Shown one piece after another: positions 25,608 to 52,277 of a stretch of DNA of 64,000 nt. This DNA is from Microbispora sp. NBC_01189 (GTDB lineage: Bacteria > Actinomycetota > Actinomycetes > Streptosporangiales > Streptosporangiaceae). The notes under the pieces were generated by a model. It worked only from the letters and a program-made list of their open reading frames with translations. It was not told the origin of the DNA and made no database searches. The stretch spans positions 3,329,501 to 3,393,500 of the forward strand of contig NZ_CP108581.1 in assembly GCF_036010665.1 (NCBI RefSeq), in the 5' to 3' direction. Position 1 is the first letter of the stretch; the number at the start of each line of letters is the position of its first letter. Position numbers and translations under genes: made by a program.

Positions 25608-25686
25608 TCTGGGCGAGTCCTCGTTGGCTGTAGTGCCCACGAACCTCGCCGATGACGGCGTCCCTTTTCCTGTCTGGAGCGCGCGC

Positions 25687-31702: not shown

Positions 31703-32175
31703 TGCCGGTTGTAGAGGTCTTCACGGTCTGTAGCAGGGCGGCAGATTCCGCCATGGGGTGCCCGTCCGCGTCATCGTCAATGACTGGTCGTGATCACTAT
31801 TGTATCGCCGCTGGTGGGCGACTTGTAGAAAGGCCTCTCGCTGGCCCGACTCGATGGGCGACGCCATGCTCGAAGGTGAGGTAGAGGCCATACCGCTAAT
31901 GTGCCGTGAGTGCGAGTTATTCAGCAGGGCACTTCCTGCAATGCTTCCAGGAGGAGCACGAGGATTCGTACGCGTTTGGGCGCGAGCTGGATGGACGTCC
32001 CGCCACTGCATGGACGTGGCATGACCTCGAGTGATCACTTGCCTTGAGTTGTGACACTCCCGCGCGCGCCACGGTAAGCGTCGCGCGGTGCCCCGCGTCC
32101 AGACGGAGCGGTCATTTCCGTGAGTTCTTTCTATCCTGGCGGCCCTGGTCACGATGGGTGCGGAGAGCAGTGACG
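31703..32175. other. About 470 bp of scrap with a possible IS5-type fragment
   Basis: On the minus strand near 31735-31790 the frame RTGTPWRNLPPCYRP resembles the RTGxPWRDLPxRYGPW motif near the N-terminus of IS5-type transposases. No other supported content. Confidence 0.3.
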
Positions 32176-32535
32176 AGTAAGAGAAGGCTTCCCGCGGACA
32201 TTCCCACCCTACGCATCTCCGACGAGCGTCTGTACTACAGCGGGAAACACAAGCAACACGGGATGAACGTCCAACTGCTGGCCGATCGCGTGGGCCGACT
32301 GGTGTCGGCCGTTTCTGCGTTGCCGGGCACCGTTCATGACGCGACCGCCGCTCGGGCCGTCGCCCTGATCGACGCCTTGGTCGGCGCCGACGCGACGACC
32401 TTCGCGGGCAAGGACTGTCAGGGCGCGGGCTGCACGATCCGGACGCCGTTCAGGCGACGGCGCCATCGTCTGCGGCTGTCGCGCGGGGAAACCAGGTGCA
32501 TGGGCGGCATACGCGGTAGCCGCTCATTGCTTTGA
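32176..32535 (+). mobile_element. IS5-family (DDE_Tnp_4) transposase remnant
   Basis: The plus-strand frame YYSGKHKQHGMNVQLLADRV, then LPGTVHDATAAR and DALVGADATTFAGKDCQGAG, is the catalytic core of actinobacterial IS5/IS1647-like transposases. FADKGYQGA has become FAGKDCQGA, removing a catalytic-region Asp. Both ends are missing and the frame decays after RTPFRRRRHR. It lies immediately left of the tRNA-associated repeat. Confidence 0.65.
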
Positions 32536-32656
32536 ACCACCAGAGACGGCAGACCGGCACCGATTCAGCGATCAAGGTGCCCAGGAGAACTCGTTTGAAC
32601 CCGTCAGTGCCCCCTGGCGGCGTTCAGACCGACGGTCAAATGACGGTCAAACGATC

Positions 32657-32692
32657 AAGGGCCTGATCGCTGTCTCCAGCGATCAGGCCCTT
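32657..32692. terminator. Duplicated tRNA terminator hairpin (left copy)
   Basis: Arms of 14 bp (AAGGGCCTGATCGC and its complement) around an 8-nt loop; the same as 46449-46484. Its original partner is the tRNA-Pro gene. Confidence 0.6.
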
Positions 32693-32706
32693 GACCTGCA
32701 ACTACC

Positions 32707-32751
32707 TGGTCGGGGTGGCGGGATTTGAACCCACGGCCTCTTCGTCCCGAA
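32707..32751 (-). other. 3' fragment of tRNA-Pro(CGG)
   Basis: Forty-five bases identical to the 3' part of the intact tRNA at 46499-46575, from the anticodon loop to the encoded CCA. The 5' half is absent and different sequence follows at 32752. A classic partial tRNA left at one end of an integrated element. Confidence 0.8.
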
Positions 32752-32853
32752 GCAATCAAGATCAGAATGGCACCTAGGCTTACGGTGCTGGTGACCTGCT
32801 GTTTCGATCCACGTGATCCACCGGTGTCCGGGGGTTGTTCGCGGCTGTCGGGG

Positions 32854-35637
32854 TCACCGGTCGCGCAGTGCCGCGGCCAGCTCGCGGCGCGAGCTGATGC
32901 CCAGCTTGGTGAAGACCTTGCGCAGGTGCCACTCGACGGTACGTGGGCTGAGGAACAGCACGGCGCCGATCTCGGGATTGGTGTGCCCCGCCGCGGCCAG
33001 GCGCGCGCTCTGCGCTTCCTGCGAGGTGAGGTCGTCGCATACGCCGAGGGTCCGCTTGCGGACGGTCTCGCCGGCGGCAACCAGCTCCCGGCCAGCCCGT
33101 TCGGCGAAGCCCTCCGCCCCCATCGTGGTGAACGCCTCGTGGGCAGCGCGGAGCTGGATCCGGGCGTCGTTGCGCCGGTTCTCCCGTCGCAGCCATTCGC
33201 CGTAGAGCAGGCGCGCCCGGGCCAGTTGCAGCCCGATCCGGCTGGCGGCGAGCCGCTCGATCGCCTTGCGGTACTGCTCCTCGGCCTTCTCGGAAGGTCC
33301 GGCGAGCGCGTCCGCGAGGGCCTGGGCGCCGAAAGCCCAGTCCGTCCCGGCGGCGCCGGTCCGCTCCGCCAGACGCTCGCGTGCCTCCGCCGCCACGGCG
33401 CGCTCCCCGACGCGCGCGGCTGCCTCGACCAGCTCGCCGAGCGTCGAGTTGAACATGGCAAGGTCCTCGTACTCGGCCGCCTGCCGAGCGGCCTCCAGTG
33501 CGGCCGGATAGTGGCCGAGCCCGTTGGACAGTACCGCCTTGGCGTAGCCGGCCAGGCCGAGCAGCCAGCCCTCGCCGCGCGCGTCGGCATCCTTGACAGT
33601 GGCCTCGATCAGCTCCAGTGCCGGGAGCTGCCGGCCGCGGTGGGCGGCCAGCGCGAGCGAGGCGGACGGATGTGCGGCCAAGCCGGTGGCCTGTCCGAGG
33701 GCGTCCGCTTCGTCGAGCAGATCCGAGGCGTCGGCGAACCGGCCCGCGAACAGCAGTGCGCCGGCGCGGGACTCCAGCGCCGTGGGCAAGAGCGGAAGCG
33801 CGCCGGTGGTGCGGGCGAAGCCGACCGCTTGCTCGGTGAGCCGGTGCCAGGCCGCGTCGTCCCACACCTCGTGTGCGACCGGCCCGGCCAGCCACAGAAG
33901 GGGCAGATCCTCATTCGCGGTGAGCGCGTCCAGGGCCCGGCGGAGAAGCGGAATGGCAAGCGCGTAGCCGTCCAGGACCCACGCCGTAAGGCCGGCCAGG
34001 AACAGACCGGCCACGTCCTCGTTGGCGGGCATGCCGCGGGCGGCCTCGGCGGCCCGGCGGAGGTTGTCGCTGCCGAGTCGGCCAGCGTGCACAGCAGCAC
34101 CGAGCGCCGAGAGGTAGGTCTCCTGCGCCGCGGGGAGATCCAGCGCCTCGAGCCGGCGGGCGGCTGCGAGCAGCGCCGGGCCGGCCGCCCGTCCGGGGTT
34201 GAGCGCGAAGGCAACCTGCGCCCGCAAACGCTCCACCCCGGCGCGCTGCAACGGGTCGAGCGGACCCAGCTCGGCAGCGGCCAGCAGGTCCGGCACCTGG
34301 GCGGGGGCGCCCGCGGCGAATCGGGCACGCGCGGCGGCCAGGGCACGCGCGGCGCGCGGCTTCGGGTCCGGGGTGAGCTCGGCAGCGCGTTCGAGGAAGG
34401 ATGCGGCCGCGGATCGGCCGCCACGGGCCAGCAGTCGGCCGGCCGACCGCTGCAGTTCGCTGGCGACCTCCTCGTCCGGTCCCACCGTGGCGTGCGCCCG
34501 ATGCCAAGCACGGCGGTCGGGGTCCTCCTCAGCATCGGTCACCTCGGCGAGCGCACGGTGCACCTCGCGCAGCTCGGCGGCCTCGCTCGAGCGCCAGCTG
34601 GCCGAGCGCACCAGCGGGTGCCGGAACCGGACCCGGGTGCCCAGTTCGACCAGTCCCGCGGCTTCCGCGGGCGCGGCGGCGTCGGGCCCGATGCCCAGCC
34701 GCTTGAGCGCGCGCCACAGCAGCGGCACGTCACCGATCGGCTCGACAGCGGCGGTGAGCAGCAGCCGGCGGGTATCCGCCGGCAGCGCGGCGATACGCCG
34801 CTGAAAGCCCTCCTCCACCCGGCTCACCAGCGGCGCTGTGCCCTGCGTGCCGAACCCGAACGCCAGCTCCGCCGGCGTAAGGCCGCGCGGCAGCTCAAGC
34901 AGGGCGAGCGGGTTGCCGCGCGTCTCGGCGACGATCCGGTCGCGTACGCGGGCGTCGACCGGATCAGGCAGCACGGAGTCCAGCAGCGCCCGCGCGTCCG
35001 CGTCGGACAGCCCGTCGACGCGTAACTCCGGCAGGCCGTCGAGAATCCGCTCGTCCCCCGGGCTACGTGAGGCGAAGACCAGCGCGACCGATTCGGCATT
35101 CAGCCGACGGGCGACGAAGGTGAGAATCACCTCGGACATCCGGTCCAGCCACTGCACGTCGTCCACAACGCAGACCAGCGGCTGTTCCAACGCGACCTCG
35201 GCGAACAGTCCGAGCACGGCGAGCCCGATGAGCAGCACCTCCGGCGGGTCGCCGAGGCTCAGCCCGAAGGCGGTGGCGAGCGCGGCACGTTGCGGCTCCG
35301 GCAGCCGGTCGAGGTGGCCCAGCAGCGGCGCGCAGAGTTGCTGCAGCGCGGAGTACGCGATCTCGGACTCCGGCTCCACCCCGGCCGCCCGGGTTACCCG
35401 GCTGGCTGGGGCGTGCTCGGTCAAGTAATCTAGCAGTGCGGTTTTGCCGGCGCCCGCCTCGCCCCGCAACACCAGCACTCGGCTGTGCCCGGCGCGGACG
35501 TCCCGCAGCAAGCGGTCGAGCGTGTCGCGCTCGCGCCGTCGGCCGCGCAGCGCCGGACCCGCGGTGTCCAAGTTCATCGTCCCCAGTGCCAACCGGCTCT
35601 CGCGCAGCCCGGACCGCCCGAGCAGGTGGTGGTTCAT
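32854..35637 (-). CDS. LuxR-family AAA-ATPase regulator with aldo/keto-reductase-like N-terminus
   Basis: 927 residues from ATG 35637, the size of large LuxR (LAL/MalT-like) activators. Walker A GEAGAGKT at about 60 and LVCVVDDVQWLD (Walker B) form the STAND ATPase; helical TPR-like repeats fill 380-830; the C-terminal LuxR HTH carries SPRTVEWHLRKVFTKLGISS. GGAGGA seven bases before ATG 35637 is the best ribosome site, but the first 20 codons (HHLLGRSGLRESRLALGTMN) are the N-terminus of an aldo/keto reductase. ATG 35577 would give a normal LuxR start. It diverges from gntR. Confidence 0.88.
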   Translation of the reverse strand: MNHHLLGRSGLRESRLALGTMNLDTAGPALRGRRRERDTLDRLLRDVRAGHSRVLVLRGEAGAGKTALLDYLTEHAPASRVTRAAGVEPESEIAYSALQQLCAPLLGHLDRLPEPQRAALATAFGLSLGDPPEVLLIGLAVLGLFAEVALEQPLVCVVDDVQWLDRMSEVILTFVARRLNAESVALVFASRSPGDERILDGLPELRVDGLSDADARALLDSVLPDPVDARVRDRIVAETRGNPLALLELPRGLTPAELAFGFGTQGTAPLVSRVEEGFQRRIAALPADTRRLLLTAAVEPIGDVPLLWRALKRLGIGPDAAAPAEAAGLVELGTRVRFRHPLVRSASWRSSEAAELREVHRALAEVTDAEEDPDRRAWHRAHATVGPDEEVASELQRSAGRLLARGGRSAAASFLERAAELTPDPKPRAARALAAARARFAAGAPAQVPDLLAAAELGPLDPLQRAGVERLRAQVAFALNPGRAAGPALLAAARRLEALDLPAAQETYLSALGAAVHAGRLGSDNLRRAAEAARGMPANEDVAGLFLAGLTAWVLDGYALAIPLLRRALDALTANEDLPLLWLAGPVAHEVWDDAAWHRLTEQAVGFARTTGALPLLPTALESRAGALLFAGRFADASDLLDEADALGQATGLAAHPSASLALAAHRGRQLPALELIEATVKDADARGEGWLLGLAGYAKAVLSNGLGHYPAALEAARQAAEYEDLAMFNSTLGELVEAAARVGERAVAAEARERLAERTGAAGTDWAFGAQALADALAGPSEKAEEQYRKAIERLAASRIGLQLARARLLYGEWLRRENRRNDARIQLRAAHEAFTTMGAEGFAERAGRELVAAGETVRKRTLGVCDDLTSQEAQSARLAAAGHTNPEIGAVLFLSPRTVEWHLRKVFTKLGISSRRELAAALRDR

Positions 35638-35738
35638 GGCAGGCTCCTCCAGATTCCAGGGCTCCGACGTGCTCTGTACTGCCGACATGCGTGCCTCCCC
35701 TTGGAAGATGTGGGGCGGGGCGCCACACCTAGGACGTT

Positions 35739-35760
35739 GATATAAGATATATTCTATATC
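35739..35760. promoter_or_regulatory. AT-rich dyad between LuxR and GntR genes
   Basis: GATATA and TATATC arms enclose AGATATATTC, itself nearly symmetric, in otherwise GC-rich DNA. It lies 30-51 bp before gntR and 102 bp from the LuxR start. Candidate GntR operator and promoter. Confidence 0.5.
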
Positions 35761-35789
35761 GTCAAGAGATGGCCTAGGATTGGTGCGCC

Positions 35790-36464
35790 ATGGAACTCAT
35801 CAACAGTGCGAGCCTCGTAGAGGCGGCTGCCGCCCACCTTCGCGGCGCGATCCTCAGCGGTGATCTCCAGCCCGGAGAGCCGGTGCGGGTGCGAGATCTG
35901 CAACAAGGGCTGGGTGTAAGCCACATCCCTATCAGGGAGGCGATTCGGCAACTCGAAGGTGAGGGGCTGATCGTCGTACGGGCGCGTCACACGCCGGTTG
36001 TGGCCGGCGTGAACCTGGACGATCTCGCGGCGATCTATGAGTTGCGACGCATGATCGAATTGCCCACCGTAAGGCTTGCCCGCGAACGCGGTTCCCGTGC
36101 GTCGATCGCCCGTGTCGAAGAGGCGTTCTCTGCCTTCGAAGCTGTCGCCGGTGACCCCAGCCGACCTGAGTACTGGGAACGGCACTCGGACTTTCATTGG
36201 GCCCTGGTCGAACCAGGTGCCAACACTTGGACGCGGCGTGTGCTCGAGCCTCTTTGGACGGCAGCCGAACGTTACGTCAGGCTGTTCGTTGCAACGTACG
36301 CAACCCCCGAGGCCACCCTCCAACTGCACCGCGCCTTGGCGGACGCGTTCTCGCAGGAAGACGCCACAGCGGTGGTAGAGGAACTCAACAACCACTTCGA
36401 TGTTACCGAGCAAGGGGTGCGGGCTGGTTTCACGAAGGCCAAGGAGGCCAAGAGTCCTGAGTGA
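35790..36464 (+). CDS. GntR-family regulator, FCD (FadR) subfamily
   Basis: 224 residues. N-terminal winged helix: HLRGAILSGDLQPGEPVRVR and VSHIPIREAIRQLEGEGLI; the C-terminal FCD domain (about 80-215) has the metal/ligand positions in YELRRMIELPTVRLA and the His-containing HSDFHWALVE. FCD regulators sense carboxylic acids. Neighbours are a LuxR activator (divergent) and an amidase (convergent); the amidase may be a target. Confidence 0.85.
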   Translation: MELINSASLVEAAAAHLRGAILSGDLQPGEPVRVRDLQQGLGVSHIPIREAIRQLEGEGLIVVRARHTPVVAGVNLDDLAAIYELRRMIELPTVRLARERGSRASIARVEEAFSAFEAVAGDPSRPEYWERHSDFHWALVEPGANTWTRRVLEPLWTAAERYVRLFVATYATPEATLQLHRALADAFSQEDATAVVEELNNHFDVTEQGVRAGFTKAKEAKSPE

Positions 36465-36684
36465 GCCATGGCCGGTGGGTCAACACCAGGGACTTAAGCA
36501 GTTAGCTGGTTGACCTGGTGGTTTGGATACCCGGCGTGAGTGTGACACTGATCGGCGGGGTGCGCGGGGGCGACGTGAAGGGGCTCCTGGTAGGAGTACA
36601 GGTCTCTAGCCCGCCGCCTCCCTCCAACCTGCGAGGACCGGTTGAAAAAGGTTCAGTCTGCACCGGGGCCCTATGCTCGCTGAT

Positions 36685-38169
36685 TCAGTCGCCCTGTGAA
36701 CCGAGATAAGGGCGCCGCCGTGCGCCCAACCTGGTCTCAACAGCTAGCCCAGCACGTAGCAAGAGGTGTTCTTGAAGCGGCCGCGCGACGAGTTCAAGCC
36801 CTACGGGAAGCCCCGCGCCAGTGAAGCCCATGGGAACGGAAAGCGCTGGCAGACCGGTCTGTGCCGCAAGAACCGTGTTCGTTGGATAGCGGAGCGAATT
36901 CCATCGTCTTGAAGTGACGTCGGAATGCAGCGGCGGCGGCACCTGAACGTCGGGGAAGGCCAGAACGTGAACATGGTTGCGGTTCATCAAATCGATGATG
37001 CCGTCTCGCAAGAGAACTTGAGCACCGGCGCGAGCCCCATAATCGGCGCCATGTATGCCGGATCTTTCGCTTGTTGCAATAGCTTCGAATAAGTCGAGCG
37101 CAGAGTGATATCGGCCCTGCTCATATATCTGATGAACGTTCTCAGCTTCAATCCCTGGTCGCGAAGCAATGAAGCCATCCAGGTCGGCTCGTGACCTGAC
37201 GAGGTACAAGGACGTCATCTCCAGCGCTGATTCCAGTTCTGGCACCTGGAGGTGCACCGGGTGAGCGCCCTCTATCTGGAGCGTCTTTGTTACTTCCGAG
37301 AAGACCCGTATGACTTCAGAGGAACTGTTTGGCCCCTCCACAAGTTGCGTCAGAATCCCGAGACGCAGGCCATCCAAGCCGCCCGTAGGAATCTCTGTGT
37401 ATGGCCGCTGTCGCTCACGGCCGTTCACGCTGAGTGAATCTTGAGGATCGTAGCCAACCAAAGCGTCCAGGAGTATGGCGGCGTCGCGGACCGATCGCGC
37501 CAACGGGCCCGCTGTGTCCTGCTCGAACACCAGTGGAGCGATCCCCACCCGACTGATCAGCCCTGGCGTCACCCTGAGGCCCACCAAATTGCAGAAGGAT
37601 GCAGGCAACCGGATTGAGCCACCGGTGTCCCCACCCACTCCTACTGCGGCGAAGTTCGCCGCGACAGCCGCCGCAGTCCCGCTGCTTGAACCCCCGGAGT
37701 CTCGGTCGAGAGCATAGGGGTTCCGCGTCAAGCCACTTAGCGACGAGGTCGAGAACCAGGAGGCTCCGAAATCGGCCATCGTGCTTTTAGCGAGAATGAT
37801 CGCGCCTGCCGCCCGTAGACGCTTCACCACGAATGCGTCGCTACTGGGAACGTTGTTTGCTGCCGCCTCGGTTCCGAAAGCCGTTCTGATGCCTGCGGTC
37901 TCGATGTTGTCTTTGAGGACGACCGGGACCCCGTGCAGGGGACCTGTGAGAGTTCCGGTCGCCCTGAGTTGACGGTCGGCCTCAGCCGCCTCTTCAAGCG
38001 CTCTGGCATTGATGGTAGCTATTGCGTTGAGCCGGGGCCCCGCCTTGTCGCCGGCATGGATGCGAGCAAGATACGCCTCTACTAGCTCGTAACTGGTGAC
38101 GTCCCCACCGAGCAAGCGCGTTCTGATGCTCTCGATCGTCACCTCGTCCAAGTCCATGGTGGCCGACAT
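36685..38169 (-). CDS. Amidase signature-family hydrolase
   Basis: 494 residues. The Ser-cisSer-Lys triad is visible: Lys in GVPVVLKDN, cis-Ser in GGSSSG and nucleophile Ser in GGDTGGSIRLPAS. It hydrolyses an amide to an acid and ammonia; the GatA-like core does not fix the substrate, and no gatC/gatB stand beside it. ATG 38169 has AAAGGA four bases upstream. Convergent with gntR across 220 bp. Codon use here looks less GC-extreme than in the core, in keeping with acquired DNA. Confidence 0.85.
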   Translation of the reverse strand: MSATMDLDEVTIESIRTRLLGGDVTSYELVEAYLARIHAGDKAGPRLNAIATINARALEEAAEADRQLRATGTLTGPLHGVPVVLKDNIETAGIRTAFGTEAAANNVPSSDAFVVKRLRAAGAIILAKSTMADFGASWFSTSSLSGLTRNPYALDRDSGGSSSGTAAAVAANFAAVGVGGDTGGSIRLPASFCNLVGLRVTPGLISRVGIAPLVFEQDTAGPLARSVRDAAILLDALVGYDPQDSLSVNGRERQRPYTEIPTGGLDGLRLGILTQLVEGPNSSSEVIRVFSEVTKTLQIEGAHPVHLQVPELESALEMTSLYLVRSRADLDGFIASRPGIEAENVHQIYEQGRYHSALDLFEAIATSERSGIHGADYGARAGAQVLLRDGIIDLMNRNHVHVLAFPDVQVPPPLHSDVTSRRWNSLRYPTNTVLAAQTGLPALSVPMGFTGAGLPVGLELVARPLQEHLLLRAGLAVETRLGARRRPYLGSQGD

Positions 38170-38233
38170 CGTATCCTTTGCCAGAGCGTGGGGCCAGCAC
38201 CCCTTCAGGGGCGTCAGCACGGCCGTTCCAAGA

Positions 38234-38590
38234 TCACGGTGTGAGTCCGAGGATGACGAATGGCCTGTTCATGTAGCGGCAGGCCCAGCGGGTGGCTTCG
38301 GTGATGTCGGTCCGTCCCGCCAGGCGTAACGCGCCGATGGCAAGGTTGCGCAGGCTGGCCATGACGCGAGGGCCGGAGCGCGTACGAACGCGGGAGTGGT
38401 CCTCGCGGAACAGGGTGTCTCTGATCCAGTGCAGAACCTCCACACCCCAGTGATCACGATTGAATCGGGCCAGGTCGGTGGGGGTAACAAGGTGTTCGTC
38501 GGGGCTGGCGACGCCGAGTTGGGCGATGGCCGACACGACGGCGCCGTCGCTGGCCTTCACGTAGCGTTCGATCAACCAGGCCTGGCTGTG
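38234..38590 (-). mobile_element. ISAs1-family transposase, C-terminal fragment
   Basis: [20 protein letters not shown], then [20 protein letters not shown] and [11 protein letters not shown], is the conserved end of ISAs1 (H-repeat) transposases, with the catalytic Glu region [11 protein letters not shown]. About 119 residues remain; the 5' part is replaced by IS1182 sequence. Confidence 0.75.
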
Positions 38591-39290
38591 CCCTGGTCCC
38601 TTTCCAGATGGCTGGTCCGGGTCCGGTCGAGGGGGTGTCCGTTCCACCAGGCGTCCAGCCGGATGAGGTTGAGCGCGACAGCCGAGTAGACGTGTTCGAG
38701 GTGGACCTTCGGCAGGCCGCGGTAGCGGGCGCGGCGGATTCCGGTGACTGCGACTGCCTGACGCACGGTGCCCTCGACTCCGGCACGGAGTTTGTACTTG
38801 TCCCCCCAGTCCCGGCTGGTCTGCTCGGCGCGGGCGCCGTCCAGGGCCTGTTAGTCCTTGCCCCGCTGACGGCAGGGACTCCAGGAACTGCTCGTCTTGC
38901 CCTGTGGGCAGGTGACCTGCCGGCCCGCCCAATCGATGGTGAAGGCGGTCCGGTCATAGCCGGTGCCGGCGCGGGCCTGTGGGAGTGATCGAGCAAGACC
39001 GGGGTGACCAGCGTAAGGCCGAACTCCTCCCGCGAGGCGACCAGGAGTTCGGCGGAGGGGTATCCCGAGTCAAGGTAGTGCTCGGCCGAGAGTAGCCCAC
39101 GCCGGGCCAGCGCCTGATGGATCGCGGTGTCGTCCCGCTTGGTCTGTGAGGCCGGCAGCCGCCAGGAGTCGACCCGGGCCCGGTACCGCTCGGCCCACCC
39201 GGGCACCTCCAGAACGCGGGCCACCCAGTCCGGCGCGGCGGCCGAGATCGCCTCCAGCGCGGACACCGTGGCCATGCGAGCAGTGTCGAA
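38591..39290 (-). mobile_element. IS1182-family transposase remnant, frameshifted
   Basis: [48 protein letters not shown] and [20 protein letters not shown] are consecutive IS1182 blocks, in three frames: a shift at about 38988, a TAA near 38851 and an internal deletion after RQRGKD. The left end is joined to the ISAs1 fragment. Confidence 0.75.
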
Positions 39291-39330
39291 CCATCCCCTG
39301 CGGGAAGGCGAACAGGAAGCCATCACCTGG

Positions 39331-39510
39331 ATGAGCCGCGACCGGGACGACGGTGTGGACTACGGGCGGGTTCCGTACGCGCGTCGCCCAAGCGGGGAAC
39401 CGGTTTTCGACGACCCGGAAGTGTTCACCGTGGGAGTCCTACCGTACGAGGCGATGCCGGGTTTCACCCTGCTTCAGGCATATCTCGCGAATGAGGAGAG
39501 CCCTAAGTAA
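39331..39510 (+). CDS. Small unidentified ORF related to 11257-11434
   Basis: About 59 residues from ATG 39331. The core GRVPYARRPSGEPVFDDPEV ends MPGFTLLQAYLANEESPK. It matches the broken ORF at 11257 over about 40 residues, and the DNA after both stops also shares GGTGAGA-CGGTCAT. The frame is open upstream into IS1182 sequence, so its true 5' end may be lost. Family and function unknown. Confidence 0.45.
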   Translation: MSRDRDDGVDYGRVPYARRPSGEPVFDDPEVFTVGVLPYEAMPGFTLLQAYLANEESPK

Positions 39511-39669
39511 GGAGGGCCGGCTCGCGAACGAACCGACCCCCGACCTACCTCATCGAAATCGACCAGGAAAACGGTGAGAGCGGTCATCAGAGAGGCTACG
39601 CTCACGCGGGGCCAGACAACAACGAAGCCGGGACGCTCGGCGTATCAGCTGGTGGATTTCACGATCCAC

Positions 39670-39882
39670 CTACTGACTGGTTGTTTGGAGGTTGGCTCTC
39701 TGGTCCGGCTCACGGGCGGAGGTGGCCCAGGCGGTAAGGACCGTGGACAGTGCATCGCAGTCGTCGGGTGTGAGGGGCGCACGCGGGAGAAGGTAGAGCA
39801 GGCCACTGAGCCCGTCGACAAGATCGACCGGCAAGGGGCGTGCGCGCACCTTCGGCGTGTTCGTGTTCACGATTAAGGTCAC
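39670..39882 (-). CDS. Small hypothetical protein
   Basis: 70 residues from GTG 39882, preceded by GGAG at close spacing. LVDGLSGLLYLLPRAPLTPD suggests one amphipathic or short membrane helix. No family recognised; it may be a chance frame. Confidence 0.3.
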   Translation of the reverse strand: MTLIVNTNTPKVRARPLPVDLVDGLSGLLYLLPRAPLTPDDCDALSTVLTAWATSAREPDQRANLQTTSQ

Positions 39883-40100
39883 TCTCCGGGCTTGGCTGGC
39901 AAGCCGTGGTTCTACGACGGCGGCCAGGGCTCCTCTGAATGGGTTTCAACCTTGGGGTGATTCATCCGCTATGTCGGATTCGACTGGGGATGTCCAGCCT
40001 GTGCCGATGGGTCCAAGCGGACGACGTTGTGAGCCGATGTCGGCAGTGAAGAAGAAGGGAAGACTCAGCCGGGCCGGATAGTTCTGATGAGCTCCCGTTC

Positions 40101-40669
40101 TCAGCTGGGGTTACCGGCCCACGCGCCGCTACCTCCTCGACGCGGTCGCCGACAGCCGGGTGAACCCAATCGCCGGCCGCACGCTCCGGTAGGACGCAAC
40201 CGTGATCGGCCCGCATCGAGTGCACCGGGCCTCGACCATCTTGCCGTCCCCACGACGATCCCGACATGGCCCGGTCGGCCCGGCGAACTACCCGGTCGGC
40301 TGTTGAAGAACACCAGATCGCCGGGCTGCTCCTGGCCAGCCGAAACGCGGACGCGAACGGCCACTGCTCAAAAGTGGTGCGGGGGATCCGCACCCCCGCG
40401 GCGGCGTACGCCTTCATCGCCAGGCCCGAGTAGTCGAAGGAACTCGGACCCGTCGCCCCACCGGTACGGCTTGCCCGTCTGAGCCAGTGCGAACCCCACC
40501 ACGTTCGCCACCACCCGGCAGCGCGACGATACGACACGCCCATGTGATCCTCGCACTGCATCTGCCGCAGAAGTACCTTGCTCAGCATCAGCCACTTGAT
40601 CTGCACAAACGCGGAGAATGAACTCAGCGCACAGCTGCTCTTCGGCAGTGGTGACGATCTCTTCGGCTT
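40101..40669 (-). pseudogene. NlpC/P60 peptidase pseudogene lacking its catalytic Cys
   Basis: Three frames hold consecutive NlpC/P60 pieces: VVGFALAQTGKPYRWGDGS, then SSFDYSGLAMKAYAAAGVRI, then QEQPGDLVFFNSRPG and PGHVGIVVG (catalytic His). The motif normally DCSGL reads DYSGL, so the nucleophilic Cys is Tyr. Frameshifts separate the pieces. NlpC/P60 enzymes cut peptidoglycan stem peptides and often come with conjugative elements, which fits the island. Confidence 0.65.
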
Positions 40670-40900
40670 TCCTCCTGGCTTCTGAGGGGTCCCACAACTG
40701 ATCGCGTTGTAGGCGGCGTCGTAGGACCAGGTGACCTGCTTACCGTCGATGGTCGCGGTTCCCGTGACAGCCACCTTGTCCGCACCGATCTGTCCGGCTC
40801 GCGCGTTGAAGGACTGGTAGGCCTCACCCGAGGCCACGTCGGCCCCTACTGCGCGCCCCGCCGGCCGCTGGGTGCGGCCGTCGATTTCTACCTTGTGCAC
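40670..40900 (-). pseudogene. Unidentified secreted-protein-like fragment
   Basis: DKVAVTGTATIDGKQVTWSY and DAAYNAISC form a strand-rich segment starting at 40900 (MHKVEIDG), fused in frame to NlpC/P60 debris. It may be the end of a neighbouring conjugative-element protein. Function unknown. Confidence 0.3.
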
Positions 40901-40935
40901 TTGGCTAACCGCCGTCCCGTGAGGCCGGGGCGTCG

Positions 40936-42363
40936 CTACTTGGTCGGGCGCCCGTATGTCTCAAGCAGGCGTAGCCAGATCTCGTTGACCGTGGGATAGG
41001 CGGGCACGGCGTGCCACAGCCGGTCGAGTGGTACCTCGCCGACGATCGCGATCGTCGCCGCCTGCAGCAACTCGCTCACGTCGGGACCGACGAAAGTCAC
41101 GCCGAGCACGATCTTGCGCTTCTCATCGACCACCATCCGAGCGGTTCCTGCGTAGCCGTCCGCACGCAAGCTCGCCCCGGGGACTTGGCCGATCTCGTAG
41201 TCGACCGTGCGGATCTCGTAGCCCGCCTCGCGCGCGGCCTGCGCCGTGAGCCCCACGGAGGCGACCTCCGGGTCGGTGAACGTCACCTGCGGCACCGCCT
41301 CATGGTCGGCGGTTGCGACGTGGGTGCCCCACTGGGCGTCCGAGACGGGCGCCCCGGCCGCCCGGGCCGCGATGACATCGCCCGCCGCACGCGCCTGGTA
41401 CTTACCCTGATGGGTGAACAGCGCCCGGCGCGTCACATCTCCGACGGCGTAAAGCCAGTCGAAGCCGGGCACGAGCATCGTGTCGTCGGTCTCGATCCAC
41501 TCGCCAGGGGTGAGACCGATCGCGTCCAGGCCGATGTCCCGCGTACGCGGCGTACGGCCCGTCGCGACCAGTACCTCCTCAGCCGTGACCATGGAACCGT
41601 CCCCGGTCTCGACGACGACGTCGCCGCCCTCCGAACGGGTCACGCGCTTCGTCTCCGTGTCGAGCAGCACCGTCACCCCCTGTTCACGCAGCGCTTTCGT
41701 GACGAGTTCGCCGGCGAACGGCTCCATGCCGACGAGCAGACCGCTGCGCGAGATCAGAGTGACCGTCGTACCGAAACCCCCGTAGGCCGTCGCCATCTCG
41801 GCGGCGACCATGCCCCCACCGATGATGGCGAGACTCGCCGGCACGCTTCTGGTGCCCGTCACCTCCCGGCTCGTCCACGGGCGGGCATCGCGCAGGCCGT
41901 CGATGTCGGGGATGAGCGCGTCGGACCCGGTGGTCACAGACACGGCATGGCGTGCGGTGAGTACGGTCGTCGAGCCGTCCGGGGCCGTGACCGTGACCTC
42001 CTTCGGGGCCGTGATGCGGCCGTGTCCGCGCACGAGCGAGATGCCTGCGCCGTCTACCCACCGCACCTGGTCTTCGTCGGACCAGTTGCTCGTGAACGAG
42101 TCACGACGCGCGAGTACGGCCCGCACGTCGAGTTCGCCTGTCACGGCCTGGGCGGCGCCTGCGACCTGCCGGGCCGCCCTCAGCGCCTGAGCGGAGCGCA
42201 GCAGCGCCTTCGAGGGCATGCACGCCCAGTAGGCGCAGTCGCCCCCGACCAGCTCATGCTCGATCAACACGACGGTCAGGCCGCCCTGCACAGCGCGGTC
42301 GGCCATGTTCTCACCGACCGGGCCGGCGCCTAGCACAATGAGGTCGTACTCGGTTGATTCCAT
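40936..42363 (-). CDS. Pyridine nucleotide-disulfide oxidoreductase, mercuric reductase-like
   Basis: 475 residues. FAD site VLGAGPVGENMADRA, redox-active pair CAYWAC (CX4C spacing, in GGDC...MPSKALL), NAD(P) site IIGGGMVAAEMATAYGG, second FAD motif YAVGDVTRRALFTHQGKYQA and dimerisation domain from about 345. It lacks the N-terminal heavy-metal domain and the C-terminal CC pair of true MerA and the HPT motif of lipoamide dehydrogenase, so the disulfide substrate is uncertain. ATG 42363 follows AGAGG. Confidence 0.85.
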   Translation of the reverse strand: MESTEYDLIVLGAGPVGENMADRAVQGGLTVVLIEHELVGGDCAYWACMPSKALLRSAQALRAARQVAGAAQAVTGELDVRAVLARRDSFTSNWSDEDQVRWVDGAGISLVRGHGRITAPKEVTVTAPDGSTTVLTARHAVSVTTGSDALIPDIDGLRDARPWTSREVTGTRSVPASLAIIGGGMVAAEMATAYGGFGTTVTLISRSGLLVGMEPFAGELVTKALREQGVTVLLDTETKRVTRSEGGDVVVETGDGSMVTAEEVLVATGRTPRTRDIGLDAIGLTPGEWIETDDTMLVPGFDWLYAVGDVTRRALFTHQGKYQARAAGDVIAARAAGAPVSDAQWGTHVATADHEAVPQVTFTDPEVASVGLTAQAAREAGYEIRTVDYEIGQVPGASLRADGYAGTARMVVDEKRKIVLGVTFVGPDVSELLQAATIAIVGEVPLDRLWHAVPAYPTVNEIWLRLLETYGRPTK

Positions 42364-42511
42364 TGTTGATGCCTCTTCTCGCAGTAGCAATCAATCGTGC
42401 TGAACCCGAAAGCTCGCAGGTCCGTACAAGCCTCTGATCTGCGCAGGCGTGAGTTTTTTGAGTAACGTCCGCCTTCCACCACCAGTTGGCTCGAGACGCC
42501 AGGCGAAACGC

Positions 42512-42979
42512 TTAGAAGCCGAAATCGTCTCCGGCTTCGTTACCGGCGACGCCGTCGCCCGAGACGTTTTCGCCGCCGAAGTCGTTCACCATGAAGGCGA
42601 TCGCGAGCTCCGACCCGATGACGTGGTCGAAGACTCTGAGGATGGAGCTTCCCATCGTGCTGCTGAAGCTCCAGTCGCCGTAGCTTCCGCCCAACATCCG
42701 CGTGAACATGCCGGGCGTGCGGGTCACCGTCTTTGCGAATGTTTCCGGCTGCGCATCCGCGGGCCGCTCGCGCGGTGTCGATGCCCTCTCAACGAACCGG
42801 TCGAACATCATGTCGCGCTGCTCGGGCGTGAGCTTCGCGAACGCCTCGGTGTGCGCCTGCTCGACCGTCTCGGGCGGGGCGGTGGCCAGCAGGTGTTCGT
42901 ACCGTTCGATGGCGAGTTCGTCATCGGTGCGGGCACCTGTCGGGTGCTCACGGCCGACAACGCGATCGAAGAATCCCAT
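42512..42979 (-). CDS. Conserved hypothetical actinobacterial protein
   Basis: 155 residues from ATG 42979, behind AGGAGCACCTC. It has a helical core, DELAIERYEHLLATAPPETV and EQAHTEAFAKLTPEQRDMMF, then a glycine-rich end (FGGENVSGDGVAGNE). Similar proteins occur in actinobacteria, sometimes labelled cation-ATPase-associated; function unknown. First member downstream of a small gene group (43814 to 42512) on this strand. Confidence 0.6.
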   Translation of the reverse strand: MGFFDRVVGREHPTGARTDDELAIERYEHLLATAPPETVEQAHTEAFAKLTPEQRDMMFDRFVERASTPRERPADAQPETFAKTVTRTPGMFTRMLGGSYGDWSFSSTMGSSILRVFDHVIGSELAIAFMVNDFGGENVSGDGVAGNEAGDDFGF

Positions 42980-43167
42980 GAGGTGCTCCTGCGCGAAGGA
43001 CTGTTCGCGTGTATTCGTCGGGGGACGCGTCCGGTTGGCGTGCGTCGTTGCCGGGGAGGGCTGTGCCAACCGGCTGAATCGCCGGTCGGCATATTCATCG
43101 CGTCCGAGATGTGTCGGTGCCTGTCCCCGAATCCGTGATCAGCTGTGCATCACCGGAAGGGCCGGAC

Positions 43168-43347
43168 TTATTGGGCCGAATGGCCGCTGAGTCGGTATCC
43201 GCCCTCGCCCAGCGTGCGCGTCATGTGCTCCGCGTACCACTGCGGCCAGTCAGCGTCATGCCTGCCGAGCTTCTCCTCGTGCAGGCCGTGCGCGGCCGCG
43301 GCGCGCTTGAGCGCGTCCAACAGGATGTCGATCGTTGACAGCGCCAT
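43168..43347 (-). CDS. Small hypothetical protein
   Basis: 59 residues from ATG 43347, with GGAGGAGTCAGCG directly before it, an excellent ribosome site. ALKRAAAAHGLHEEKLGRHD and WPQWYAEHMTRTL match a family of very small actinobacterial proteins with the WPxWYAEHM motif. Function unknown. It begins 23 bp after the VOC gene, likely co-transcribed. Confidence 0.65.
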   Translation of the reverse strand: MALSTIDILLDALKRAAAAHGLHEEKLGRHDADWPQWYAEHMTRTLGEGGYRLSGHSAQ

Positions 43348-43370
43348 CGCTGACTCCTCCACGCTCTCGC

Positions 43371-43814
43371 TCATCGTCCAGGGGCCCTTTTCTTGACTTC
43401 CTGCAGCATCCAGCCGTTGCCGTCCGGGTCGCTGAACGAGGCGAAGGACCCGTAGTCACTGCGATCCGGATGCGGGCCGGTCACCCGCTGCTCGTTTCCG
43501 ATGTGATAAAACACGCCTCCCGCATCGTGGAACACCTCCGACACGTCGACGCCGCGCCCGACGAGATCGGCACGAGCCGCCTCGATGTCGAAGACGACGA
43601 GTTGCAGGCCCTGCAGCGAGCCCGGTGCGGCCGGCGTGATTCCGGTGCCGATGATGATCGAGGCCTCCGACCCGGGAGGCGTGAACTGCACCACCCGGAA
43701 GTCCTCACTGGCGACGTGGTCGATATCCATCCGGAACCCCAACGTCTCGTAGAAGCGCTTCGCCCGATCGACGTCGGAGACAGGAACTACCAGAACCTCG
43801 AGTTTCATATCCAT
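43371..43814 (-). CDS. VOC-family (glyoxalase/bleomycin-resistance-like) protein
   Basis: 147 residues, two beta-alpha-beta-beta-beta modules: VLVVPVSDVDRAKRFYETLG at the N-terminus and FASFSDPDGNGWMLQEV at the C-terminus. The metal-ligand Glu of the last strand is in LQEV; the first-strand His is not obvious. VOC proteins include lyases, dioxygenases and drug-binding proteins. ATG 43814 follows GAAAGG at a long distance. It leads the small operon with 43168. Confidence 0.75.
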   Translation of the reverse strand: MDMKLEVLVVPVSDVDRAKRFYETLGFRMDIDHVASEDFRVVQFTPPGSEASIIIGTGITPAAPGSLQGLQLVVFDIEAARADLVGRGVDVSEVFHDAGGVFYHIGNEQRVTGPHPDRSDYGSFASFSDPDGNGWMLQEVKKRAPGR

Positions 43815-44124
43815 GATCACAGATACCTTTCCCTCTGTTGCTCGTGCGTAATGGGATGCGGCCGGCTTTGACTTCTGGCTGTTGTGTCGCCGGAACGTCA
43901 AAGCCGGCGCTTGTGGATCCTCGAGCCCGGACGAGCACTACGAGCGCGCCCAGATCGACGCATTTACCGCGGTCCGGCTTCGCCACCGCGCCCGCGCCGG
44001 GCCGCGAGGCCCGAGTGCCCCACCGAGTCGGCGCGGCTCTGTCATGAAGAGCGAGGTGCCGGAGTCGGCGCCGACGATTTCGACCGGCCGGGTACCGGGC
44101 GCGGTGAAAAGCTGCAGAATGGCG
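43815..44124. other. 310 bp between VOC and epoxide hydrolase genes, no gene seen
   Basis: Open frames are short and compositionally noise-like. It should hold the promoter for the VOC operon; I see no clear motif. Confidence 0.35.
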
Positions 44125-45414
44125 TCAGCGCAGTGATCTGAACGCTGCTCGGATCTCGGCGCTGAAGAGCTTCGGCTCTTCCCACGCTGCGAAGTGACCG
44201 CCCTTGTCGACCTCGTTGAAATAGATCAGCTTGTGGTAGCTGCGCTCGGCCCAGCTTCGAGGCGCGCGGTAGATCTCACCAGGAAAGACCGTTATGGCAG
44301 CGGGGATGGAGATGTCCACGGCATTGAAGTTGTTCTCGTTGTTCTCCGAGTAGAGCTGGGCGGAAGAGACCGCGCTGTTGGTGAGCCAGTAGAGCGTGAT
44401 GTCGTCGAGCATCTCGTCTTTGGTGAGCGACCGCTCGGGCTCGCCGCCGCTGTAAGTCCATTCGGCGAACTTGTCATACATCCAGGCGGCCAGGCCGACA
44501 GGTGAATCCGTCAGTCCGTAGCCCACGGTTTGCGGGCGGGTCACCATCATGATGGCGTAGCCACTGTTCTTCTTGTAGAGCCTGTCCAGTGATTCGAATG
44601 CGGCCTTTTCCTTGGGGGACAGCCCGGCCGGCGCGGGTTCGCCGTTGTTGAGGGCCTTCGCGATGTCCGGCGGCACGGTCGCAGGCATGTTGACGTGGAT
44701 GCCGAGCAGTCCCGGAAACGCCCGACGCGCCATCTTGTCCGAGATCACCGAACCCCAGTCGCCGCCCTGGGACACATAGTGCTTGTATCCCAGACGCTTC
44801 ATCAGCACGTCCCAGGCGAGCCCGATGCGGTCGGCATTCCAGCCAGTGGTCTTCGGCTTGCCCGAAAAACCGTAACCGGGCATCGAGGGCAGAACGAGAT
44901 GGAAGGCATCCTCCGCGCGTCCTCCGAAGGCCGTGGGATCGGTGAGCGGGCCAATGACCTTCAGGAGCTCCAGGACCGAGCCCGGCCAGCCATGGGTCAT
45001 GATCAGCGGCAGTGCGTTCGGATGACGAGAGCGGACGTGCGCGAACTGAATGTCGATTCCATCGATCTCCGTCATAAACTGCGGCAGGGCGTTCAGCTTC
45101 GACTCCACCTTCCGCCAGTCGTAGTCCGTCCCCCAGTAGTGGACGAGGTTCTGGAGCTTCGCCAATTTGACGCCCTGGGACTGATCGGTGACGGTCTCCC
45201 GGGCCGGCCACCGTGTCTCCGCGATGCGTCGGCGGAGATCAACGAGGTCCTTCGTCGGAACGTTGATGCGGAAAGGGCGGATCGCGTTGCCTTTGGGCCC
45301 TGCGGTCGGCTGTGGGGCAGAGCCGAAGGCAGTCGAGGTTGTTGCGGCAAGCGCGGCGGCGGCTGTGGTAGCAAGAAAGCCACGACGCGTGGGCGAAGGC
45401 ATCTTTTCGGACAT
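44125..45414 (-). CDS. Tat-exported epoxide hydrolase (EHN plus alpha/beta-hydrolase)
   Basis: 429 residues. A twin-arginine signal (SPTRRGFLATTAAAALAAT) precedes the EHN domain (FRINVPTKDLVDLRRRIAET, about 45-155) and the hydrolase core: oxyanion HGWPGS, nucleophile Asp in GGDWGS, and catalytic His in GGHFAAWE. This is the microsomal/juvenile-hormone epoxide-hydrolase architecture; it opens epoxides to diols outside the membrane. ATG 45414 follows GAGGAGAATG. It stands alone on this strand. Confidence 0.88.
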   Translation of the reverse strand: MSEKMPSPTRRGFLATTAAAALAATTSTAFGSAPQPTAGPKGNAIRPFRINVPTKDLVDLRRRIAETRWPARETVTDQSQGVKLAKLQNLVHYWGTDYDWRKVESKLNALPQFMTEIDGIDIQFAHVRSRHPNALPLIMTHGWPGSVLELLKVIGPLTDPTAFGGRAEDAFHLVLPSMPGYGFSGKPKTTGWNADRIGLAWDVLMKRLGYKHYVSQGGDWGSVISDKMARRAFPGLLGIHVNMPATVPPDIAKALNNGEPAPAGLSPKEKAAFESLDRLYKKNSGYAIMMVTRPQTVGYGLTDSPVGLAAWMYDKFAEWTYSGGEPERSLTKDEMLDDITLYWLTNSAVSSAQLYSENNENNFNAVDISIPAAITVFPGEIYRAPRSWAERSYHKLIYFNEVDKGGHFAAWEEPKLFSAEIRAAFRSLR

Positions 45415-45643
45415 GGATCATTCTCCTCGGTGAATTGGCAGGTCAGCCGCCGCATCTTGGTTGACGCGGCGTAGAACGAATTGGGCTTTAGCTGACCCGG
45501 GCCGCCCTCGGAGCCCGCGTCGGTAGGTCTTTCATGGGGCCGGACAGGACTGAACTCATTGTTGTTGTCTGCGCCGCCGAACGAACCCGTGAAGAACCCT
45601 GGTCACCCCCCGGGGAGGAGCCCGGGGACACCGCGACCGCGAC

Positions 45644-45952
45644 TCAGGGCAGCTGTGCGGGCGAGCGGAGCTGCCTTCGTGAGCTGATGCCGAGCTTGCC
45701 GAAGACCTTGCTCAGGTGCCATTCGACGGTGCGCGGGCTGAGAACAGCCGGGCGCCGATCTCCGGATTCGACAGACCCTCGCGGACGTGCCGGGCGATCT
45801 GGGCCTCTTGCGCGGTGTGTGCTCGGCGGTGCGCTTGCGGACCGTGTCACCGGCGGCTTGTAGCTCGCGGGCGGCACGTCGGCGAACTCCGCCATCCCCA
45901 TTCCGCTGAACATCTCGTGGGCGACACGCAGCTGCTCGCGCCGAACGTCGCG
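45644..45952 (-). pseudogene. Decayed LuxR regulator, C-terminal end
   Basis: RVAHEMFSGMGMAEFADV matches the pre-HTH helix of the intact LuxR at 32854 (AAHEAFTTMGAEGFAERA), and SPRTVEWHLSKVFGKLGISS matches its HTH almost exactly. The frames between are shifted and the first HTH helix is damaged. About 100 codons of a former 900 remain. A second, dead relative at the opposite end of the island. Confidence 0.65.
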
Positions 45953-45995
45953 TGAGTCACGGTGCCGGCCGGGACAACGCATAGCCGGGCATCGG

Positions 45996-46310
45996 TCAGA
46001 CTTCGCCCTTCGTCTCCTGCGTCTTGTCGCGCTGCGGATTACGGCGAAAGCCCACGCGTGTCGCCACCAGTTGCGAGGCGACATCGTCGCGATGGGCCCG
46101 AAGCCACACCTCCTGCAAGCCCACGCTGGGGAAGATCCAGGAAGTGAACAAGGCCACCGCTCGCGCCCACCCCGCGTCCACGCGCGTCGGCGGCCACCCA
46201 GCAAGAGACTTCCCTAGCTTGCCCGTCATGCTGCAAGGCGATGTTGCCCAGTCGCTGCCCGGTGACCGAATCGCAGATGAGGAATGGACGCCGCACAGGT
46301 TCTGGCGGCG
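45996..46310 (-). pseudogene. Decayed GNAT acetyltransferase
   Basis: One frame reads FLICDSVTGQRLGNIALQHD and VSCWVAADARGRGVGA, the acetyl-CoA-binding motif A; after a shift near 46160 it continues LQEVWLRAHRDDVASQLVA and TRVGFRRN, motif B, to the stop at 45996. The N-terminal third is cut off at about the edge of the 182-bp repeat. Confidence 0.6.
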
Positions 46311-46361
46311 ATCCGGGCTTGGTTTGAACGCCCGCCTGGGGCGAGCGGGTCGCAGCGACTT

Positions 46362-46543
46362 GATCAAGGTGCCCAGGAGAACTCGTTTGAACCCGTCGGT
46401 GCCCCCTGGCGGCGTTCAGACCGACGGTCAAATGACGGTCAAACGATCAAGGGCCTGATCGCTGTCTCCAGCGATCAGGCCCTTGACCTGCAACTACCTG
46501 GTCGGGGTGGCGGGATTTGAACCCACGGCCTCTTCGTCCCGAA
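46362..46543. repeat. Right copy of 182-bp direct repeat, overlapping tRNA-Pro
   Basis: Spans from 137 bp beyond the tRNA 3' end into the tRNA up to its anticodon loop. The partner is 32570-32751 (181/182 identical by eye). To its right lies conserved core; to its left the GNAT and LuxR wreckage of the island. Confidence 0.85.
46449..46484. terminator. Terminator hairpin of tRNA-Pro
   Basis: AAGGGCCTGATCGC and its exact complement (14-bp arms) enclose TGTCTCCA, starting 15 bp beyond the tRNA CCA end. No clear U-run, as is usual in high-GC actinobacteria. Confidence 0.65.
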
Positions 46544-46575
46544 CGAAGCGCGCTGCCAAGCTGCGCTACACCCCG
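46499..46575 (-). tRNA. tRNA-Pro (anticodon CGG)
   Basis: The minus strand folds as a full cloverleaf: acceptor CGGGGTG/CACCCCG, D-arm with AGCGCAGCTTGGCAGCGC, anticodon stem CTTCG/CGAAG around loop TTCGGGA (anticodon CGG, reading CCG), and T-arm CGTGG-GTTCGAATC-CCGC. Discriminator A and an encoded CCA follow (46502-46499). Intact and presumably functional; its 3' half is duplicated 13.8 kb to the left. Confidence 0.95.
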
Positions 46576-47543: not shown

Positions 47544-47624
47544 ACAGCCATGATGCCCGACCTTCGCGCCGTCTCCCGCATAACCTGGCGAAGACCGGGC
47601 CCCCGGCACGGCAAGATGGGACGC

Positions 47625-48080: not shown

Positions 48081-48107
48081 CCACCGGGGCGGCCTCCGCC
48101 GGAGTGC

Positions 48108-48141
48108 CCTAAAGACCGGAGGGTCCTAAAGACCGGAGGGT
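48108..48141. repeat. 17-bp tandem duplication
   Basis: CCTAAAGACCGGAGGGT occurs twice without a spacer in the gap between convergent yqeY and the penicillin-binding protein gene. Confidence 0.7.
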
Positions 48142-48197
48142 CCCGGTACGCCGACGGGCCGCGCCTCGGGCAGAGGAGCGGCCCACCGGAGGGGACG

Positions 48198-48231
48198 CCG
48201 GTCGAAGGCCTCCATCGGAGGCCCCGACCGG
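48198..48231. terminator. Bidirectional terminator hairpin
   Basis: Nested arms CCGGTCG/CGACCGG and GGCCTCC/GGAGGCC with loop ATC give a long hairpin just beyond the stop of the penicillin-binding protein gene and facing yqeY. Confidence 0.6.
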
Positions 48232-48238
48232 TCGAACC

Positions 48239-51037: not shown

Positions 51038-51072
51038 CCGGCGGCCGGTCCCTCCCCGAGGAGGGCCGGACG

Positions 51073-52212: not shown

Positions 52213-52277
52213 AGCTCAGCCTCTCACTCGGTGGGCACGAAATCGGTCGGCAGCGGGTCGGGTCGGGTCGGCAGGGC

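What the first reader, a model, noticed from the sequence alone, without database searches (positions are those of the whole stretch)
32570..46575. Integration scar: 182-bp repeat in tRNA-Pro brackets 13.8 kb
The left copy stops exactly at the anticodon loop and keeps only the tRNA 3' part; the right copy is in the intact gene. That is the signature of tyrosine-recombinase insertion. The identity extends about 137 bp past the tRNA, unusually far, and no integrase or replication gene remains inside. It is either a cargo-only, decayed island or one mobilised in trans.
Basis: partly seen in the sequence, partly recalled or inferred. Interest (0 to 1): 0.75.

Follow-up and report, generated by a model that had tools for sequence, protein, structure and literature searches.

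The report
Decayed mobile-element stack at tRNA-Pro
A 13.8-kb block in a soil actinomycete was probably left behind by several mobile elements that inserted one after another into the same tRNA gene; its overlong flanking repeat is best read as two copies of an integrase docking site, and its mismatched ends suggest that it can no longer move.

Summary
The repeat is real: 32570-32751 and 46362-46543, 181/182 identical; the left copy starts at the anticodon loop of tRNA-Pro(CGG), whose intact gene is on the right. Two relatives keep the uninterrupted site: they align across the predicted empty-site junction for 126 and 288 bp. The locus is a hotspot with tandem elements in relatives.

The extra 137 bp is best read not as a long crossover core but as the P' arm of attP of a widespread ICE family ("type A"), with paired TTTGACCGTC repeats; the same pair lies beside that family's integrase, and the arm also occurs beside tRNA-Ile. 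The block's other end matches a different family ("type B", GAGTGAC repeats), with the repeats eroded.

Best model: three integrations (A, B, A), then one deletion that removed both integrase genes and the internal att site. No integrase is inside, and no close type-A integrase is in the genome, so mobilisation in trans is unlikely. This is a decayed, chimeric relative of a CIME. Insertion, hotspot and arm similarities are shown by sequence; protein binding, event order and immobility are inferred.

The parts
46499..46575 (-). intact tRNA-Pro(CGG), the attB target
   Evidence: ARAGORN; Rfam
46362..46543 (-). right (proximal) 182-bp repeat: tRNA 3' half 46499-46543 plus type-A P' arm 46362-46498
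46423..46443 (-). paired TTTGACCGTC repeats, putative type-A arm-type integrase sites
46447..46486 (-). 40-bp palindrome, probable tRNA terminator, within the arm
32570..32751 (-). left (distal) 182-bp repeat: tRNA 3' half 32707-32751 plus a second type-A P' arm 32570-32706, read as that of the older resident
32631..32651 (-). paired TTTGACCGTC repeats of the older resident's arm
32752..32848 (-). type-B P arm remnant (82% to the arm of G102); first GAGTGAC repeat gone, second reduced to GGTGAC
   Evidence: the motif scan finds no intact pair here
32282..32569 (.). proximal end of the older resident (transposase remnant); contiguous with an intact tRNA-Pro in G010 (to 32444) and G173 (to 32282)
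32044..32535 (+). DDE_Tnp_4 transposase remnant in the older resident's end
32854..35688 (-). LuxR/AAA_16 regulator; stop codon lies in the type-B arm remnant
35790..36464 (+). GntR/FCD regulator
36685..38220 (-). amidase
38234..38932 (-). DDE_Tnp_1 transposase remnant
39275..39552 (+). fragment 72% identical to a stretch inside the type-A elements of G009 and G007
40936..42390 (-). pyridine nucleotide-disulphide oxidoreductase
43371..43901 (-). glyoxalase/VOC-family protein
44125..45414 (-). epoxide hydrolase
45644..46204 (-). LuxR (GerE) C-terminal remnant
   Evidence: weak: E 2e-4, 21.2 bits, below the 23.5 cut-off

Best explanation
The 13.8-kb block is the remnant of a tandem accretion at tRNA-Pro(CGG). 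A type-A ICE (Y) integrated first, leaving its P' arm beside the tRNA. A type-B element then integrated at the rebuilt tRNA, and after it a second type-A element (X), giving tRNA | A-P' ... intA A-P | half | B-P' intB ... B-P | half | A-P'(Y). Because intA sits at its element's distal end and intB at its proximal end, the two integrase genes lay on either side of the internal att site. One deletion across it, running into the type-B arm beside the LuxR gene, removed both and left an integrase-free block with A and B ends between two A-P' arms. Those two arms plus the tRNA half make the 182-bp repeat. Shown: insertion, hotspot, arm similarities, matched elements in relatives, no integrase. Inferred: that the repeats bind integrase, the order of events, and the deletion.
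For: (1) The in-silico empty site (right flank to 46362 joined to 32569) aligns without a break to G010 (666 bp, 92.5%, 126 bp past the junction) and to G173, another genus (825 bp, 82.7%, 288 bp past); G009 and G007 stop 3 and 0 bp past it (4 relatives tested). (2) The right-flank gene 46611-47609 is found in all 28 fetched loci that hold an intact tRNA-Pro(CGG) gene (of 52 loci searched), while the other side holds different elements. (3) Of 42 tRNA-half copies typed in 25 stretches (24 genomes, chosen because they had tRNA or arm matches), 27 have a paired repeat 49-59 bp downstream; the same kind of pair sits 104-143 bp inside the distal end of the matching element. Motif counts near junctions / elsewhere in 2.29 M strand-bases: A 24/1, A' 9/0, B 7/8, C 4/0. 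(4) The arm also stands beside tRNA-Ile in G324 (L114). (5) Strong arm (E<=1e-20) in 12 of 17 genomes with a type-A integrase piece >=74% identical and in 14 of 324 without, Fisher p = 1.2e-11 (cut-offs chosen after seeing the data, related genomes not corrected for). (6) A and A' integrases differ most in the N-terminal part (33/62 identical, then 57/82 and 239/300 for G002), as expected if it reads the arm. (7) The left inner end matches type-B arms. (8) Segments with both ends typed and matching: 8, each with an integrase or part of one; mismatched: 3 (G000, G010, G102), none with one.
Against: The type-B call for G000 rests on 82% identity over 97 bp; the motif itself was not found there. 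The B motif is the least specific: 8 hits away from junctions against 7 near. Of four type-B elements held whole at other tRNA genes, only three have an integrase at the proximal end (two as fragments, G321 and G240; full in G104) and only two have the paired P' repeat (G104, G240; G321 has one repeat); G322 has neither. No genome shows the full three-element intermediate. Eight segments with an untyped end were left out of the 8-against-3 count. G011, closest in the right flank (94%), has LuxR-LuxR-epoxide hydrolase, a VOC protein and an oxidoreductase beside the same tRNA with no arm and no second tRNA half in C18:1-30000, so part of the cargo may be an older resident. Only one short stretch (39275-39552) looks ICE-derived. 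The flank used for the empty site is a transposase remnant, which could in principle have inserted separately in each genome. In G102 the most distal arm lies beside an acyl-CoA dehydrogenase gene that is also near the site in G006, which a native origin of the arm would explain too. 14 genomes have the arm without a close integrase.
Confidence: 0.67

Rival explanations
1. One type-A element integrated once and decayed. The 137 bp is native sequence downstream of the tRNA that the element's attP also carries, so the whole 182 bp is the att identity block.
For: In G102 the most distal arm copy lies next to an acyl-CoA dehydrogenase gene that is also near the site in G006. Only one integration is needed. 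Long identity at a tRNA-inserted ICE is known: 93 nt at tRNA-Thr in Streptomyces (PMC9513070, passage).
Against: The arm sits beside tRNA-Ile in G324. The same repeat pair lies on the other side of the core, next to the type-A integrase, in G009, G007, G010 and G101. Of 14 same-genus genomes, 3 match the whole 214 bp, 3 match tRNA + 57 bp, 1 matches tRNA + 70 bp, 6 (G001, G003, G006, G011, G012, G013) match the tRNA and at most 6 bp more at the intact gene, and G008 cannot be judged (contig ends at the tRNA). The left inner end resembles type B, not type A.
Confidence: 0.16
2. A still-mobile integrase-free element (CIME or IME) moved in trans or in cis by a type-B integrase, such as the one at tRNA-Pro(TGG) in the same genome.
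For: The own genome has an apparently intact type-B element (972295-990997) with an integrase 80% identical to the one at tRNA-Pro(CGG) in G102. A type-B-like end remains at 32752-32848. PMC9513070 suggests possible cis-mobilisation of such remnants (section 14 read).
Against: The proximal end lacks the type-B P' arm, the distal arm has lost its paired repeat, and the tRNA-Pro(TGG) core differs from the CGG core.
Confidence: 0.1
3. Local duplication, homologous recombination or an assembly artefact produced the repeat.
For: Two near-identical copies on one replicon can arise this way.
Against: The left copy ends exactly at the anticodon loop; two relatives have the uninterrupted site; no other long duplication spans the interval; the same junction order [B arm | half | A arm] occurs twice in G102 and once in G101.
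Confidence: 0.03

Closest known systems
CIME (cis-mobilisable element), as defined in PMC5704250 (passages seen), which cites Pavlovic 2004 (not seen)
   Same: Cargo between two att sites at a site used for accretion, with integration and transfer genes lost.
   Different: A CIME is said to keep attL and attR. Here one end is type A and the other an eroded type B, so no single integrase would be expected to recognise both.
Decayed AICEs and accretion at one insertion site in Streptomyces (PMC9513070; passages and section 14 seen)
   Same: Successive integration of elements with different integrases in one tRNA gene, and remnants of cargo between direct repeats.
   Different: The type-A family here has T4SS-type genes (6 of 10 ORFs scanned) rather than AICE traB. 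The decayed remnants shown there keep a partial integrase and the repeats of one element.
Putative arm-type sites of Cluster J mycobacteriophage attP (PMC3706429; passages seen)
   Same: Pairs of about 10-bp direct repeats on both sides of a core that overlaps a tRNA gene.
   Different: Different sequences (TTTGACCGTC and GAGTGAC rather than TGCATAC-type) and linked to ICE-like elements here; no binding data.

Membership tests
CIME | flanked by two att sites sharing a core | tested here: met
   tRNA 3' half at both ends
CIME | integration and conjugation modules lost | tested here: met
   no PF00589 or PF00239 match in the window; no transfer gene among the 13.8-kb ORFs scanned with Pfam
CIME | both ends are sites of one integrase (attL and attR retained) | tested here: not met
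   by sequence: proximal end type A, distal end type-B-like with the repeat pair eroded; function not assayed
CIME | moves in cis with an incoming element | not testable with these tools
   needs excision and transfer assays
Tyrosine-integrase genomic island in a tRNA gene | insertion at the tRNA 3' end that keeps the gene intact, absent in relatives | tested here: met
Tyrosine-integrase genomic island in a tRNA gene | own integrase | tested here: not met
ICE/AICE | conjugation genes | tested here: not met
   none; only a 72% fragment at 39275-39552 is shared with type-A elements

The most novel reading that the evidence does not exclude
attP arms act as a readable label for the integrase family, and gene geometry decides how stacks decay. 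Type-A elements keep their integrase at the distal end and type-B at the proximal end, so in an A-B tandem one deletion removes both integrases and leaves an immobile A...B chimera. Such mismatched-arm chimeras (G000, G010, G102) would be a recurrent end product at this hotspot and a general way for cargo to become fixed.
Probability: 0.4. Interest if true: 0.55.

Novelty: new variant of a known kind. Interest (0 to 1): 0.38.

Why it matters
A long direct repeat at a tRNA island is easily read as the att core. Here the extra length is better read as duplicated integrase-arm sequence, which would tell how many elements integrated and of which family even when every integrase is gone. Arm typing could help to resolve nested islands in actinomycete genomes and to predict which remnants can still move.

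Tried and rejected
Integrase elsewhere in the genome matching the site: no close type-A integrase (8 hits at E<=1e-5, best 31% over residues 14-229). A type-B integrase exists but at tRNA-Pro(TGG), and its core and arms do not fit both ends of the block. Serine recombinase inside: none. A type-B arm hit at 5282454 in the own genome had no tRNA in the 15-kb stretch fetched; not followed. Searching the 154-bp distal end over 341 genomes mostly returned the tRNA half itself (336 of 341 genomes); only the hits reaching into the arm were used. The type-B arm query hit 91 of 341 genomes, mostly over its first 30-80 bp only. Of the 8 loci outside tRNA-Pro(CGG) looked at, 6 show a tRNA 3' half after the arm and 2 (L154, L159) do not. 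The LuxR gene was tested for truncation by the junction: the ten best hits other than itself align to residue 939-943 of 944, so it is essentially full length. Native left edge of the hotspot: HxlR / acyl-CoA dehydrogenase genes looked like it, but in G104 they lie between two tRNA-half copies, so it stays unsettled. Paper searches: the one for mismatched att sites in composite islands (five of six terms) found one unrelated paper; some searches listed (titles and abstract starts) no description of this hotspot. That is not proof of absence: most subscription journals are not held.

Counts: one search used a first table of 12/15 against 14/326; I recounted the listings by hand and repeated the test as 12/17 against 14/324. 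The 8-against-3 segment count gives 1 in 165 by hand, not by a tool. One of the 8 is the own-genome tRNA-Pro(TGG) element; one (G101) has only integrase pieces; of the G002 element only the two ends were fetched. G000 was put in the mismatched group by alignment, not by motif. Left out for an untyped end: G102 270663-282053, G101 47962-52845, G083, G006, G013, G105, G200, G104; of these G102 and G083 hold integrase pieces and G200 an integrase frame. The 24 copies aligned had been chosen because they match the arm, so their likeness is no independent count; three labels there (G116, G121, G114ile) are locus numbers and stand for G201, G161 and G324. After this check I lowered the main model from 0.68 to 0.67 and raised the single-element rival from 0.15 to 0.16, for the G322 result and the weak B motif.
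Full report
Observation. The 182-bp direct repeat is present as described (181/182 identical). The right copy overlaps the 3' half of an intact tRNA-Pro(CGG) gene at 46499-46575 on the minus strand; the left copy begins at tRNA position 33, in the anticodon loop. The tRNA half has no further copy in the 224 kb scanned, and the 137 bp has only these two copies in the genome at E<=1e-6. The identity and the exact anticodon-loop boundary are far beyond chance.

Is it an insertion? I joined the two flanks in silico. G010 (same genus) and G173 (another genus) align without a break across the join, for 126 and 288 bp past it; G009 and G007 stop there. So the sequence left of the left copy stands directly beside the tRNA in two relatives, and in the window the 13.8 kb lies between. 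The gene right of the tRNA (46611-47609) is found in all 28 fetched loci with an intact tRNA-Pro(CGG). On the other side lie different elements, although several relatives share a common element backbone, with second tRNA-half copies 1 to 103 kb away. The site is an integration hotspot.

What is the extra 137 bp? It matches 98 of 341 family genomes at E<=1e-6, often over a shorter stretch. An alignment of 24 copies chosen by that match shows a palindrome, then two TTTGACCGTC repeats, then GTTCAAAC sites, ending at CACCTTGATC, after which the sequences diverge. One copy sits beside tRNA-Ile. A pair of the same repeat is found inside the distal end of large elements, between the tRNA half and a 446-458-aa tyrosine integrase (G009, G007, G010). 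Six of ten long ORFs from these elements in G009 and G310 match T4SS families (TraG-type P-loop ATPase, TrbL, T4SS pilin, coupling protein; one TrbL match is below its cut-off), so they look like ICEs. Pairs of direct repeats on both sides of a tRNA-overlapping core are described as putative arm-type integrase sites in mycobacteriophages (PMC3706429, passages seen). I therefore read the 137 bp as the P' arm of a type-A attP. Binding is not shown.

A second arm type. The inner side of the left copy (32752-32848) is not the type-A distal arm. It matches (82% to G102) a set of arms in G102, G010 and G227 that carry GAGTGAC(N5)GAGTGAC. Such type-B arms also occur at truncated halves of other tRNA genes (6 of 8 loci; tRNA-Pro(GGG) and tRNA-Ala confirmed by ARAGORN, the Ile and Val names are my reading). 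In the type-B element of G102 the 361-aa integrase and the pair GAGTGACTAACTGAGTGAC sit at the proximal end. Elsewhere this holds in part: G104 has both, G240 a fragment and the pair, G321 a fragment and one repeat, G322 neither. The own genome holds one that looks intact at tRNA-Pro(TGG): tRNA 972295-972371, integrase frame 972450-973682 (80% to that of G102), distal half at 990954 with a type-B pair before it. In the window's block the first repeat of the pair is replaced by the end of the LuxR gene and the second keeps only GGTGAC.

Grammar of the stack. Typing 42 tRNA-half copies in 25 stretches of 24 genomes gave an arm downstream in 27. Segments with both ends typed are matched in 8 cases (A/A in G009, G007, G010, G101; A'/A' in G002; B/B and C/C in G102; B/B at the own tRNA-Pro(TGG)), and each has an integrase or part of one. 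They are mismatched in 3 (A'/B in G010 and G102; A/eroded B in G000) and none has one. Eight segments with an untyped end were left out; three of them hold an integrase or pieces. In all three mismatches the A-like end is proximal and the B end distal, which is the order in which both integrase genes flank the internal junction, so that one deletion can remove both.

Mechanism. Y (type A), then a type-B element, then X (type A), then one deletion. This accounts for the long repeat (two A arms plus the core), the B-like left end, the missing integrases and the uninterrupted site in G010 and G173. Each integration rebuilds the tRNA, which explains accretion. The order is inferred. The three-element intermediate was not found, though G102 shows a type-B element directly in front of a type-A arm (copies 262971 and 270663), the same junction order as the window's left end.

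Against. G011 carries related cargo (epoxide hydrolase 82%, VOC 58%, LuxR 48-51%, and a distant oxidoreductase 36%) beside its tRNA without an arm, so some cargo may have been resident before. The type-B assignment of the window's end is by similarity, and the B motif is not very specific (7 hits near junctions, 8 elsewhere). The association of arm and integrase is strong (12 of 17 against 14 of 324, p = 1.2e-11), but its cut-offs were chosen after the listings were seen, relatedness was not corrected for, and 14 genomes have the arm without a close integrase.

Known background. Accretion of elements with different integrases at one tRNA gene, decay, and possible cis-mobilisation of remnants are described for Streptomyces (PMC9513070, passages and section 14 seen), and the CIME concept in PMC5704250 (passages seen). 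Tandem AICEs are in PMC3218068 (passages seen). The present case is of that kind, with the difference that its ends resemble two integrase families.

Organism.

Noticed in passing
window 11960-27022: Parts of it match G003 at 92-97% nucleotide identity at the same tRNA-Pro locus, while the right flank is only 86% identical to G003: probably a second, more recently exchanged island segment in the hotspot.
   Followed up: partly
G000:C1:972295-990997 (L188, L189): Apparently intact 18.6-kb type-B element at tRNA-Pro(TGG) with matched arms and a full-length integrase frame.
   Followed up: partly
L114 (G324) 10261-10474: Type-A arm directly downstream of tRNA-Ile(GAT): the element family may have switched its tRNA target.
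   Followed up: no
L152, L153, L155-L158: Type-B arms next to truncated 3' halves of other tRNA genes (Pro(GGG) and Ala confirmed; Ile and Val by my reading) in several genera.
   Followed up: partly
L109 10342-10434 and L049 18108-18201: ARAGORN calls extra tRNA-Pro-like genes, 93-94 nt long, near or inside elements; may be spurious.
   Followed up: no
window 38234-38932 and 39962-40900: Transposase remnant, and a frame-broken stretch with a weak NlpC/P60-like match below cut-off, inside the 13.8 kb.
   Followed up: partly
G000:C1:5282454-5282503 (L184): Further type-B-like arm fragment (84%, 50 bp) with no tRNA gene in the 15 kb fetched.
   Followed up: no
G102:C8:253536-285344: Stack of four segments with arm types C, B, A and A' at tRNA-Pro(CGG); the C and B segments have integrases with matching ends. 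A good natural model for accretion.
   Followed up: partly
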